Below are positions 17,442-22,906 of a DNA stretch of 64,000 nt, in pieces; within the stretch, counting starts at the first letter, position 1; every line of letters begins with the position of its first letter. The notes beneath the pieces were generated by a model, which saw only the letters and a program-made list of their open reading frames with translations, did not search any database and was not told the DNA's origin. Location: the NCBI GenBank assembly GCA_024305745.1, contig JAHRBS010000001.1, forward strand, positions 2,356,001 to 2,420,000, written 5' to 3'. This DNA is from Polyporus tsugae (Eukaryota; Basidiomycota; Agaricomycetes; Polyporales; Polyporaceae). The translations under genes were made by a program, and so were the position numbers.

Positions 17442-20396
17442 CTACACTGTACGCAAATCCGGACCCTTGCGGAAATAGTCCTCCCACCAACTGCGTTGCG
17501 CGGACTGGGTGGAAGGGCCCGGACTCTGGTTCTGCAGCTTCGCGTCGTACGTACGCTTCTGGTCTGGATCCGATAGGATCTCGTACGCACGGGCGATTTG
17601 TCTGAACTTCTCCGCAACGCCGCCCTATTACGGTGAACCAACAATAGCCGTCGTTTAGGAATCTCGTACTGCTCGCACAATAAAGTTTTTGACATACCTT
17701 GTCCGGATGATGCTTGAGTGACAGCGCGCGATAAGCCTTCTTGATATCGACGGCCGAACAACTCCTAGTCAGACCTGAGTGGACAGAAGTCCGACGTCTT
17801 AAGACGAGGTCGTCCGCAAAAAAGGCGGCTACACTCACCAATGGTAGCATAGTGATCCTGCTGCTTGCTCCCTTCGACCTTAGCTCGCTGTTCTGCTTCC
17901 TCGAGTTCCGCCTCGATCCCACGCTTATCCGTACCATTCGACGACGCCTTCCCATGCTCCAGCGCCGCACGGAAGTCTTCGGCCGCTGTCTCGAACAATT
18001 CGAGGCCGACCATGATGCGAGCGCGGCATAGAAACGCCTTGTAGTCCGCCGGGCAGAGTTGCAGGGACTCATTGACGTCCTTCAAGCCGTCAGCGAATTC
18101 GCGGATCTATGGACGCACGTCAGGAATAGTCATGTAGCAGCATAGTGCGAGCGGTCGTACCTTGCACAGAGCTGTAGCTCGATCCAGCAGAAGAATGGAG
18201 CGGAGGATACCTCCCCGACCTTCACTGTCTCGCTCGCCAAGGACCTATGTCTCGAAAATAGGTCACAGTGCAACGAAACCACGTATCGCCTCGACTTACC
18301 CCTAATGCGCTGGCCCAGGATGCAATCGCTGTTTGGTACTCATTCCGTTGGAACGCATCGCTTCCGCTCCCCTTCAATCGTACGACCTCCTTGACGCGGT
18401 ACCGCAACGCCTTGGCCGTCCCATTATCGGGGTCGAGTTTCAGAACCGCGGCCAGCTGCGTCAGCGCTTCAGACGGCTTCGCAATCAAGAACAACGCTAG
18501 ACCGCGCAGCGTCATCGCGTCGACGTCATTCGGCACGTCTCGCAACAGGACGCTGCGCGCATGGGAGCGAATCAGCATGCGGCCGGTTGGACGGCCAGGA
18601 ATCAGGATGAAACGATGGCGGCTCACTCGACAGACTTCATTGCGTCCTCCAATTTGCCTTCCGCGATTAGCAGCTCGACGCCCCAGCAGCTCACCTGCCC
18701 GGGCGCATCGCTGTGTTCTTGCGCGTATACGGACAGGCAGGACTCGTATGCGCTGCGCGCCATGCGCCAGTGATCCCGGGACACGGCCCCTCTGTATGCG
18801 GCCATGTGGCCTTCTAGTTCCAAGATGCGGCGTCGCAGCGACAACGCGTCCCCGTCAGCACCGTTTATAGATAGTGCATCCTTAACGGCAAGCAGGGCTG
18901 ACGACGGGGATCCAAGGAGAAGGCGGCAGCGAGCGATAGGAAGCAAGCAGTCGCTGCGCGGGGTGTAGGTCGGCTTGGTTGACGCGAGGTCGAAGTCCCG
19001 CAGGGCGGCTGCGTATTCATGGAGCTTCATGTGGGTAAATGCGCGAGTGATATAATACTCAGGTTCATGTGGTTCGAGCGCTATGCATTTTCGACTTGAG
19101 GAGTAGCATGTGAATGAACATATTGACACATACCTACCGCCTCCGCGAGCGATGTCAGCGCACGGTCGTAGTTATCCTTGGCAAGCTCATATTCGGCAGC
19201 TTTCCAAAGACCTTGTGCTTTGAGGTGTGTGTGTTTATCGACATATGGGCTTCAGGAACCAGCATTAGGATTCCAGCTCCCGATAGCAGGAAATCAATGA
19301 GATACCGTTCTCGATGCTTCGGCTTCGTAGGTTTTGGGTGGTCAGTTTTTGGATTGGCGTAACGGGGTTCTTCTCGTCTGTTGGCCGAAAAAGAGGCTTG
19401 CCGATTGGTTTCTTCTTGGAATATAGAACATGACCTGTGAATAAGTATCTGAGTCTAGGCTCCATCCCACCAAACCTCTGCCCAACCTACCGCGAGTCGT
19501 GCTGATGACTACCACACTTGTGGCATCGGGGAGCTGAGGGTGGCAGAGGGCTGGGCGCAGCCGGTGTTTCGATTGGTCCTTTGTCGGACGGCGTTGGGGT
19601 CTTTGGCACCTCCTCTGGCTTCACTCGGTCTGGGGATGGGGTCGTCCGCTTGTTGGATTTCTCGAAGCAGAAGAGAGATTCATGCCCAGATTTGCCACAG
19701 ACCTGCAATTGCTTGAGAAGACGCACGGAAGACGGAGAAGGGTAGAGACGTACGGAACACGGCATTTGGAAGCACTCCCAGCGCATATGTCCGTCCTCCC
19801 CGCACACGGTACAAGTTCGCTCCTGTTTCACTCCCTTGGTACCCTTCGTACTCGAGGGGTTCTTTGTTGCGTTTTCCGGCTTCTGTTGACAAGGTGAGAG
19901 TCCACAGGCGGCGCATACATCCACCGACACTCACCGGTTTGGGGCGATTCTCACAATTAGGTGCCGTATGCCCCAAGCTATGGCACAGCTGGCAGCGCTT
20001 ACGACGGTACCCCTTCTGCTTGGTACACTCCCAGTGTCCGTGGCCCGACTGGGCGCAGTTCTTGCATATCCAGCTCTGCGCCGCTCTTCAGGGAAAAAAA
20101 AAACCACAGAATCAACACCAAGCCACAACGTACCTCGCGGTCAGGGCAGCCTTGGCTAGTGTGACCCTTTTGCCCGCATCCTCCGCACGTCCGGTCCAGA
20201 TGACGCTGAGGACAAGCCTTCGATTCATGACCGGGCTTACAGCACTGGAAGCAGACTCGATGTTGAAAGCTACATTGAGATGTCGTGTGTTCGACTAAGT
20301 GGTGTTAGCACGCATCGGTGCAAATCAGAGAGCCTTGAGATACGTACCGCTACCACACTTGGAACAACGTGTCGCCGTCCTGTTGGGGCGGGGCAT
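17442..20396 (-). CDS. Eight CCHC zinc knuckles + TPR + C-terminal DnaJ domain (single-gene model)
   Basis: Thirteen exons (20396-20348, 20294-20134, 20075-19935, 19882-19754, 19702-19491, 19434-19306, 19249-19134, 19080-18627, 18552-18300, 18244-18161, 18106-17839, 17774-17698, 17624-17442) stay in phase to 751 residues. Residues 11-242 hold eight C-x2-C-x4-H-x4-C knuckles (from CSKCGSVEHTTSQC to CHKCGSHQHDSRSC), as in CNBP/Gis2-type nucleic-acid binders. A basic linker follows, then TPRs from LKAQGLWKAAEYELAKD, and a C-terminal J domain (IKKAYRALSLKHHPDKGG) as in DNAJC7/Tpr2, the Hsp70-Hsp90 co-chaperone. The last cysteine of knuckle 8 comes only from exon 6, and the first TPR exon has no ATG of its own. 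Two separate genes remain the alternative: a knuckle protein stopping at 19487 and a J-TPR gene with an unseen start. Confidence 0.65.
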
Positions 20397-20776
20397 TCTG
20401 TAGGACGTGCGACTGTGGTCGACCTGGAAGGTGGCAAAGAGGATGACGTTGTCTTCGTTGGACGCGCGAGCTCAAGCGCATGCGGTTCCCAGCACGCGGC
20501 CGAACAAGCACCGCGGGGAACATGGTGAGAACGTGCGGACCATTCTGGTCCCAATGCACGATGCATAAGAAGCTGTCATATGTGATAGAGAGCAGTCCTG
20601 AAAAGAAGCGCATGGGATAGGAAGCCCACGGTTGCACCTTCACTGGATCACGGCAGAGATACGTTCATGGCGTTTACCCCAACATCTTAGGCGGTCGCGG
20701 AGCCTCTCGCCCACGCAAGGTGCACGAAAGGTGCAAAGGGTATTATTGGCATTTGCGTAAATAGAAATTACCGCGC
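20397..20776. other. Intergenic region between two minus-strand genes
   Basis: 380 bases holding the 3' end of the V-ATPase transcript and the promoter of the zinc-knuckle/TPR/J gene. A minus-strand frame here starting near 20643 runs into knuckle exon 1 in the wrong frame and is not called. Confidence 0.5.
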
Positions 20777-21765
20777 TCAGTGTACAAATGGTGATGCTAT
20801 TGCCGCAGGGGCTGCCGCAGCAAACTCCCCGGTCTGCGTGATCATCAGCAGTCCAACTATGCCATAGATCAGCAGGAGATGCGTGAAGACGTGTCATGGA
20901 CCACGCACCGATGAGACCGAAGAGGCCCAAGATACTCCCGAAGACCTCTACGATGAGAATCTTGACGAACAGGTCGGGATCCGCAGCGTCTGCTAGGGCC
21001 GCGGTGGAACCGGCAACACCGACAGAGATACCGCAAAGCAGATTGCACGCGCCGACGGTCAGACCTCCCCAGAAGAGCGCGTATCCTGAGGACATGCACC
21101 AAAGATCAGTGGAAGGGGAACGCTGGATATGTGTTGGTGACACAGACCTGTGAAGTAGTTCTCGCGCGTGTACAGAAGACTGTCTTGGACAGCGGTGACG
21201 CGCGCTGAGTATACGATGCCAATAATCTATCGCAATGATTTGAGGCCACTGGGGAGGTCAAAACGAGGCATATACTCACGACACCATAGATGGCCACAAC
21301 CTCGCAGAAGATGATACTATAGCATGGTTGGCATATGCCTTGGACGTGAAATAAAGTTACACATACCTGATCAAGTTCTTCGTCCTAATGCGAGGCGCAC
21401 GTACACCTCCACCAAGGATAGAAGCACCCGTAATGAAGATACCCCTACCACGGAACACGAGGTAAGGAGGTTACAACCAGGAGTATGGTAGTAGACACGC
21501 GTACCATCCGGCGCCCAACACACTCAACCCTATGCACAATCCAATTCCTGTGGATGCCCAAGCATACGGGCTCGTCTCCTCAAGGAACTGGCCAACATTG
21601 AATGCCTCCCCAGAACCTGTGCCATCCCAAAGACCGATTAGCTTGGTCGAGGCTGAATGCGGGTTGCATCAAAGCTGACTTGCCAGTGAAAAGCAGATAG
21701 AGGGCGACGACTATAGCAAGGAATGTGGGAAGTCCATAGGTGTAGTACGACGAATACAAGCCCAT
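20777..21765 (-). CDS. VMA16: V-type ATPase proteolipid subunit c''
   Basis: Several short exons starting at the ATG at 21765 encode a hydrophobic protein that matches the c'' proteolipid: [40 protein letters not shown], the membrane glutamate in [29 protein letters not shown], and [17 protein letters not shown]. c'' sits in the Vo rotor ring and carries protons across vacuole and Golgi membranes. The end differs from yeast: after GLLM the last exon reads ITQTGEF and an Ala-rich tail to a TGA at 20777. Intron 1 (21683-21617) has a GC donor (GCAAGT), the only one that gives [15 protein letters not shown] in frame. Confidence 0.93.
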
Positions 21766-21937: not shown

Positions 21938-22906
21938 ATGTATCATCTCCTGAAAGGCTTTCACGAATATCTCACAAGGTACGACTCCGCGATCTTTGAG
22001 TGCCACTCGTTTCTCATTCTTTAGGAAGGAGGAGTTCTCGGTTATCATCATCGGGCTAGACGGCGCGGGGAAGACAGTTCGTGTTCTTCTTTATATGCTA
22101 ACGCGCTGAAGTTATATTCGCGTGCAGACATTGCTTGAGAAGATCAAGACATTATACAATGAGACCCCTGGACTATCTCCAGACAAGATTGCACCCACAG
22201 TCGGCCAGAACAGTACGTCTTCTGAATGGTTGCTCTGAGTTTCTACTGAAGTCCTCGTGTCCCGGACAGTGGGGAAGATCACTCTCCCATCCACAATCCT
22301 GAAGTTCTGGGATCTAGGAGGACAGCGCGGAATACGCTCGATATGGCACCGGTACTATGACGATTGTCATGCCGTCGTGTTCGTGATCGACGCTGAGGAC
22401 CGGGAACGATTGAGCGAGGGTTGGGAGGTATTCGGTATGCACATGGTCATGTCTACCCATCTCCTACATGCTGACGGTGGGCAAGGGACATAAGACTCTG
22501 TATTGTCGTCCCCGCAGATCCTGGGCGTTCCCCTACTCCTCCTTGCGAACAAGCAAGATAGTCCGCACAGCCTGTCCGTGGAAGAGATTCGCAACGACTA
22601 CGAAGAATGGCATCGGCGGAAAGTAGAAAGTGCGCGGAGGAGTTATGGGGAGGAGGTGGACTCGCAGCACCGTTCGGAACGCATAGCGAGCTTGGATGTT
22701 ATGGGTGTATCCGCGCTTGAAGGGTACGTTTCGTTGCAACGTGTTCTCTGCATTGTCAGACTTGAGCCGGTTCATAGGACCAACGTTCGAGGCGCCATTG
22801 ACTGGTTATTCATTCGCGTGCAGAACAGTCGACGGAGGTACGCGCTCATGCTGTTCCATGGATGGATAATGCACGAACTAACTCCCATACTAGAGAGGAA
22901 TCATGA
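21938..22906 (+). CDS. ARL3: Arf-like GTPase of the ARFRP1/Arl3 type
   Basis: A multi-exon gene with the full small-GTPase set: P-loop GLDGAGKT, switch I PTVGQN, switch II WDLGGQ, NKQD, and a SA(L)-type G5 box near the end. The insert SPDKIAPTVGQNMGKI and the relaxed N-terminus (MYHLLKGFHEYL, no Gly2 for myristoylation) fit ARFRP1/yeast Arl3, which recruits Arl1 and golgins at the trans-Golgi and is N-acetylated instead. The last intron (56 bases, good CTAAC branch site) gives the short end NSRRREES; reading through it would add an unconserved tail. It is divergent from VMA16. Confidence 0.88.

What the first reader, a model, noticed from the sequence alone, without database searches (positions are those of the whole stretch)
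17442..20396. Eight zinc knuckles, TPRs and a J domain appear to form one protein
A 13-exon model keeps reading phase at all 12 junctions. The bridge between the knuckle half and the J-TPR half consists of two 56-base introns (19490-19435 and 19305-19250) with good donors and branch sites. Exon 6 supplies the last Cys of knuckle 8, and the first TPR exon lacks any ATG after an upstream in-frame stop. J-TPR proteins (DNAJC7/Tpr2) are Hsp70/Hsp90 co-chaperones and CCHC arrays of this type bind RNA or ssDNA. I know of no described protein with both, so it may tie chaperone recruitment to nucleic acids.
Basis: partly seen in the sequence, partly recalled or inferred. Interest (0 to 1): 0.8.

Follow-up and report, generated by a model that had tools for sequence, protein, structure and literature searches.

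The report
Zinc-knuckle J-domain chaperone in polypores
A bracket-fungus gene appears to join an RNA-binding-type zinc-knuckle array to a fast-evolving Hsp70 helper (TPR plus J domain) in one protein; relatives in three other polypores support this, but no transcript has been seen.

Summary
On the minus strand of a Ganoderma-like genome, 13 exons (20396-17442) give an open 751-aa frame with eight exact CX2CX4HX4C knuckles, TPRs and a J domain with HPD.

Knuckle and J-TPR halves are annotated separately in three other polypores, each pair on contigs of identical length, hence probably linked. In Cerioporus squamosus the J-TPR model itself carries knuckle 8 and a knuckle-7 remnant, while knuckles 2-5 are in a second, partial model: the split runs through the array. 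One protein: about 0.75 likely. Against: weak splice sites at intron 6, a frame change in the G. leucocontextum knuckle model, and knuckle models found in only 3 of 12 named species of the clade.

The Hsp70/Hsp90-adaptor reading is only partly right. The gene is a Polyporales paralogue, apart from the DNAJC7-like gene elsewhere in the genome. Its first TPR cluster lacks all five carboxylate-clamp residues. It probably engages Hsp70 through the J domain and places it by RNA and client binding; RNA binding is inferred from Gis2/CNBP resemblance.

The parts
20348..20396 (-). exon 1: start ATG, first half of knuckle 1
   Evidence: no in-frame ATG between the upstream stop and this ATG (ORF 20325-20471)
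20134..20294 (-). exon 2: rest of knuckle 1, knuckles 2 and 3
   Evidence: K2 and K3 collinear in P0062, P0063, P0064, P0065
19935..20075 (-). exon 3: knuckles 4 and 5
   Evidence: collinear in P0062, P0064, P0065
19754..19882 (-). exon 4: knuckle 6, first part of knuckle 7
19491..19702 (-). exon 5: rest of knuckle 7, linker, knuckle 8 except its last Cys
   Evidence: matched in one protein with TPR-J in Cerioporus P0003
19435..19490 (-). bridge intron 5 (56 nt); if retained, the frame stops at once (CGG TAG)
   Evidence: ORF 19487-19930 ends HDSR
19306..19434 (-). exon 6: last Cys of knuckle 8 and charged linker
   Evidence: C-x-IF-x2-ETN shared with P0003; exon-6 peptide against P0003: 6 of 2000 shuffles score as high
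19250..19305 (-). bridge intron 6 (56 nt), weak acceptor and donor, CTAAT branch site
19134..19249 (-). exon 7: start of TPR cluster A
18627..19080 (-). exon 8: TPRs
   Evidence: fold from relative P0001
18300..18552 (-). exon 9: TPRs
   Evidence: fold from relative P0001
18161..18244 (-). exon 10: TPRs
   Evidence: fold from relative P0001
17839..18106 (-). exon 11: last TPRs and start of the J domain
17698..17774 (-). exon 12: J domain with HPD
17442..17624 (-). exon 13: end of J domain, short tail, stop

Best explanation
This is one gene for a J-domain co-chaperone of Polyporales: a Gis2/CNBP-like array of eight zinc knuckles, joined by a charged linker to a nine-pair TPR superhelix and a C-terminal J domain. 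Steps: (1) the knuckles bind single-stranded, probably G-rich RNA (inferred from resemblance); (2) the TPR groove, which no longer carries the clamp for Hsp70/Hsp90 tails in its first cluster, holds a client or RNP partner (inferred from residue loss and from DNAJC7 binding tau by its TPRs); (3) the J domain, HPD intact, triggers Hsp70 ATP hydrolysis on that client (established J-domain chemistry; here inferred). The net effect would be local Hsp70 action on RNA-protein complexes, for instance stress-granule or translation mRNPs. Architecture about 0.75 likely, this mechanism about 0.35; the single confidence figure given here is for the architecture with a general RNA-linked chaperone role.
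For: Open 751-aa frame across 12 junctions; eight exact knuckles far beyond chance. In 3 of 3 named species where both a knuckle model and a J-TPR model were found, the listed contig lengths are equal: G. leucocontextum 756951 (P0062/P0001), Dichomitus squalens 496625 (P0064/P0004), Cerioporus squamosus 102892 (P0065/P0003). P0003 has the knuckle-7 remnant, knuckle 8, linker, TPRs and J in one model; K7-to-exon-6 scores 131 against at most 71 in 2000 shuffles, most of it from knuckle 8 (101 alone, at most 50 in shuffles). Each of the four exact knuckles in P0064 and in P0065 best matches the collinear window knuckle (K2-K5), and the P0003 one matches K8. Only one, poor, alternative ATG route into the TPR exon among those tested. 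HPD in 14 of 15 rows of the window's clade. Clamp of cluster A complete in none of these 15 rows (5 lack letters at one or two positions but already differ at N6), against 9 of 9 canonical-clade rows with letters at all five. Model of P0001: pLDDT 91.1, nine TPR-like helix pairs plus J, nearest P58IPK. Gis2 has RNA-dependent partners and enters stress granules (PMC3528734, abstract).
Against: No transcript evidence. The gene is annotated as two models in all three species where both halves were found. Of the 12 named species with J-TPR models in the window's clade (P0001-P0014), only 3 gave a knuckle model (annotated proteins only, limited by length range and shared words). P0062 (G. leucocontextum) leaves the window's frame before knuckle 6, as a one-base length difference would explain (DNA not seen). 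P0001 starts at a Met that the window lacks. Intron 6 has the lowest acceptor score of 16. No annotated protein with knuckles 1-5 and J-TPR together was found in 413-1314 aa (only 7997 candidates scored). Exon 6's linker is not significantly similar to P0004, P0006 or P0002.
Confidence: 0.6

Rival explanations
1. Two neighbouring same-strand genes: a knuckle protein and a J-TPR protein, kept linked but translated separately; the apparent fusion is chance phase agreement across a short gap.
For: Separate models in three species; weak intron 6; frame change in P0062; internal Met start in P0001; no knuckle model found for 9 of 12 named species of the clade.
Against: The last Cys of knuckle 8 lies beyond intron 5 in the window, and Cerioporus has knuckle 8 within the J-TPR model. 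P0065 is marked partial and its match ends after knuckle 5, so the split falls inside the array. No good ATG for the TPR part among the routes tested.
Confidence: 0.2
2. One locus, two products: splicing of intron 5 gives the fused chaperone, retention stops at once (CGG TAG) and gives a knuckle-only protein with a broken knuckle 8.
For: In-frame TAG immediately after the donor (ORF 19487-19930 ends HDSR).
Against: Short fungal introns often contain early stops (general knowledge), so one such stop is weak evidence; no transcript data.
Confidence: 0.12
3. The gene is drifting: a fast, partly decaying paralogue whose reading frame is open in this genome by luck.
For: Mean pairwise identity 0.50 in the 15 rows of its clade against 0.64 in 11 DNAJC7-like rows, species not matched; clamp lost and P0009 has HPN; frame change in P0062.
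Against: Open over 751 aa here; HPD kept in 14 of 15 rows; individual knuckles kept in order across genera.
Confidence: 0.08

Closest known systems
DNAJC7/Tpr2 and DNAJC3/P58IPK (J-TPR co-chaperones)
   Same: TPR array followed by a C-terminal J domain with HPD; best solved matches are P58IPK structures.
   Different: Eight zinc knuckles ahead of the TPRs; carboxylate clamp lost in cluster A; separate clade from the DNAJC7-like gene of the same genome.
Gis2/CNBP (ZNF9) zinc-knuckle proteins
   Same: Series of CX2CX4HX4C knuckles; knuckle 2 (CFxCxxPGHESxxCP) resembles arrays of P0066, P0067 and of the own genome on C13 (43% over residues 16-69, E 1.9e-6) (calling these Gis2-like is my reading).
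   Different: Fused to TPR-J; eight knuckles with a 47-residue gap before the last; the own genome has a separate Gis2-like array.
J proteins tied to ribosomes or RNA (Zuo1, Jjj1, DNAJC17; recalled)
   Same: Precedent for placing Hsp70 by RNA or ribosome binding.
   Different: None recalled to have CCHC knuckles or TPRs.
Type I DnaJ (CXXCXGXG zinc domain; recalled)
   Same: J domain plus zinc-binding Cys.
   Different: No PF00684 match; different Cys spacing, position and order.

Membership tests
J-TPR co-chaperone (DNAJC7/DNAJC3-like) | multi-TPR array followed by a C-terminal J domain | tested here: met
   window protein; relative P0001, 94% identical
J-TPR co-chaperone (DNAJC7/DNAJC3-like) | HPD motif in the J domain | tested here: met
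   (window HPD)
DNAJC7-like orthologue group of Agaricomycetes | places with the DNAJC7-like clade that holds the own-genome C3 copy | tested here: not met
   window falls in a 15-row clade (97/99) apart from the 10-row clade (80/96) with the C3 copy; some outgroup branches are long
Carboxylate-clamp TPR co-chaperone of Hsp70/Hsp90 | K5N9-N6-K2R6 clamp in a three-motif TPR domain (PMC2939883, passages) | tested here: not met
   cluster A W-E-T-D-P; last cluster K-S-D-K-C. The last cluster has T at the final position even in the C3 copy; the middle TPRs were not tested
Gis2/CNBP | tandem CX2CX4HX4C knuckles | tested here: met
Gis2/CNBP | small stand-alone protein of knuckles (recalled) | tested here: not met
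   if the fusion is right
Gis2/CNBP | binds single-stranded nucleic acid | not testable with these tools
   needs a binding assay
Type I DnaJ | CXXCXGXG zinc domain (PF00684) | tested here: not met
   no match at E up to 0.1

The most novel reading that the evidence does not exclude
A Polyporales-specific class of RNA-guided J protein: duplication freed a DNAJC7-like gene, its TPR groove lost the Hsp70/Hsp90 tail clamp, and an ordered Gis2-like array was fused on to direct Hsp70 to particular RNAs, possibly with intron-5 retention switching between a knuckle-only and a chaperone form.
Probability: 0.25. Interest if true: 0.7.

Novelty: new variant of a known kind. Interest (0 to 1): 0.47.

Why it matters
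J proteins decide where Hsp70 acts. One that carries its own multi-knuckle array of the nucleic-acid-binding type and has given up the usual tail clamp would be a natural, testable case of Hsp70 aimed by RNA. It would also show that annotation has split one fungal gene in several species.

Tried and rejected
Type I DnaJ zinc domain: rejected, no PF00684 and the wrong Cys spacing. Gag-type or retroelement knuckles: the genome-wide zf-CCHC search lists 108 matches, many in long frames, but I did not classify them; the order-by-order conservation of knuckles beside J-TPR in other genera speaks against a fresh insertion. Splice choices (first acceptor of intron 2, first donor of intron 7 in both) broke the frame and were replaced.

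One viral-contig scan with P0001 gave no relative. The genome search states that G000 has no relatives held, so DNA of other polypores could not be read. Alignment A1 misplaced the Cerioporus row and was dropped for A2. NCBIfam gave generic DnaJ/TPR hits for P0001 and P0003, of which one TPR domain in P0003 was over its cut-off, and nothing for P0064 or P0065. Exon-6 linker similarity to P0004, P0006 and P0002 was not above shuffles. Of the 61 hits (P0001-P0032, P0036) were aligned and 27 put in the tree. P0025, P0027-P0029, P0031 and P0032 were left out of the tree and of the clamp table; P0033-P0035 and P0037-P0061 entered only the motif scan. The unnamed knuckle proteins (P0063, P0066-P0077) could not be tested for linkage.

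Literature: no paper on a knuckle-TPR-J protein seen (15 of 31 listed; 2 of 2; 15 of 19; 0; 0; 1 of 1; 0); listings only, open-licence papers only. Searches looked for background.

Full report
WHAT IS THERE. The finding lies on the minus strand of a 43.2-Mb, 18-contig genome that is close to Ganoderma leucocontextum (nearest protein 94% identical; the genus is my inference). I rebuilt the gene from the sequence. Thirteen exons from 20396 to 17442 give 751 codons without a stop. Two introns needed a second look: intron 2 ends at ...GCGGCGCAG and intron 7 starts at GTATGT; the first choices broke the frame. Eight exact CX2CX4HX4C motifs occur at aa 11, 31, 53, 74, 98, 141, 159 and 220. Shuffling the first 240 residues 20,000 times gave at most two motifs (7 shuffles) and shuffling the whole protein at most one (42 shuffles). 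Pfam's short zf-CCHC model is not listed for the whole protein at E<=0.1 and scores the knuckle half below its cut-off (17.6 against 20.8 bits), so the identification rests on the motif and on relatives. The J domain is clear (E 4.3e-19, aa 660-718), as are the TPRs.

IS IT ONE PROTEIN? In the window itself the case is fair. Exon 6 is open, keeps phase, and supplies the eighth knuckle's last Cys. The TPR exon has an upstream in-frame stop and no in-frame ATG. Testing the ATGs between 19700 and the end of exon 7 with no intron or one GT-AG intron of 40-149 nt, only ATG 19431 with a poor donor (GTTACG) and a 114-nt intron reaches the TPR frame; the other listed item is an artefact past the exon end.

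RELATIVES DECIDE MOST OF IT. A full-length search found 61 proteins among 7997 scored candidates. The closest, P0001-P0014, are models without an exact knuckle apart from P0003 of Cerioporus squamosus. P0003 carries HESMLCFE (end of knuckle 7), CRQCGSHQHVSENC (knuckle 8), a linker, TPRs and J in one model. The stretch from knuckle 7 to exon 6 scores 131 against P0003's N-terminus, with a maximum of 71 in 2000 shuffles; most of that is knuckle 8, which alone scores 101 against at most 50. The knuckle half alone found two proteins among 187 candidates. A profile of it found 16 at E<=10 among 2563 candidates. Three of these come from named polypores that also gave a J-TPR model: P0062 (G. leucocontextum), P0064 (Dichomitus squalens) and P0065 (C. 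squamosus, 'partial'). In all three the listed longest-contig length equals that of the J-TPR model: 756951, 496625 and 102892. I take that as the same contig, though I could not see distance, strand or order. In P0064 and P0065 each of the four exact knuckles best matches the collinear window knuckle K2-K5, and P0003's matches K8. So in Cerioporus the array itself is cut between two models, which gene prediction would do to one gene and nature would hardly do to two.

EVIDENCE AGAINST. In all three species the annotation is split. Of the 12 named species that have J-TPR models in the window's clade, nine gave no knuckle model; unannotated exons or divergence could explain that, but so could absence. 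The G. leucocontextum knuckle model follows the window through knuckle 5 and then reads another frame, as a one-base length difference would cause; I cannot tell a real change from an assembly error. Its J-TPR model begins at a Met that the window lacks. Similarity of the exon-6 linker is weak: 6 of 2000 shuffles reach the score with P0003, 22 of 2000 with P0005, and it is not significant with P0002, P0004 or P0006. No RNA data exist here. I put one protein at about 0.75.

WHERE DO THE KNUCKLES COME FROM? Beyond the named polypores the profile reaches P0066 (E 1.9e-9) and P0067 (E 8.8e-6), which I read as Gis2-like. The own genome has a separate array of that type on C13 (CYNCRQPGHESAAC, CYSCGGVGHIQAEC). 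The window's array is therefore probably a diverged Gis2/CNBP-like one and not the fungus's main Gis2.

MECHANISM. Shown: architecture in sequence, equal contig lengths in relatives, clamp loss in the first cluster, HPD kept. Inferred: knuckles bind RNA as Gis2/CNBP do (Gis2 has RNA-dependent partners and enters stress granules; PMC3528734, abstract); the TPR groove binds clients, as DNAJC7's TPRs bind tau (PMC8429438, passages, which also note that DNAJC7 itself deviates from HOP at tail-binding residues, so clamp loss is a matter of degree); the J domain drives Hsp70 (DNAJC7 promotes refolding by Hsp72; PMC8913300, passage). The likeliest job is Hsp70 action on RNA-protein complexes. An in-frame TAG straight after the intron-5 donor means that intron retention would yield a knuckle-only protein; whether it is used is unknown.

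VERDICT. A real, probably single gene with a domain order for which I found no description in the searches (open-licence papers, listings only). It is a new variant of J-TPR co-chaperones, interesting but not yet shown at transcript level.

Noticed in passing
window about 20900-21100, - strand: The upstream same-strand neighbour encodes a V-ATPase/ATP-synthase c-type proteolipid (PF00137).
   Followed up: partly
window 22239-22493, + strand: Exon of an Arf-family GTPase (PF00025).
   Followed up: partly
P0014 (Fomitopsis serialis): A J-TPR protein of the same clade has an N-terminal extension with three CxCxxC motifs (CRCMQC, CTCSIC, CACTAC), a different Cys array in the place of the knuckles.
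   Followed up: no
P0009 (Taiwanofungus camphoratus): HPN in place of HPD in the J domain, expected to weaken or abolish Hsp70 stimulation.
   Followed up: no
P0062 (G. leucocontextum): Knuckle model leaves the window's frame before knuckle 6, so the fused frame may be broken there or the assembly may be wrong at that point.
   Followed up: partly
P0072: Unnamed 428-aa protein with another long knuckle array (E 0.03), probably not closely related.
   Followed up: no
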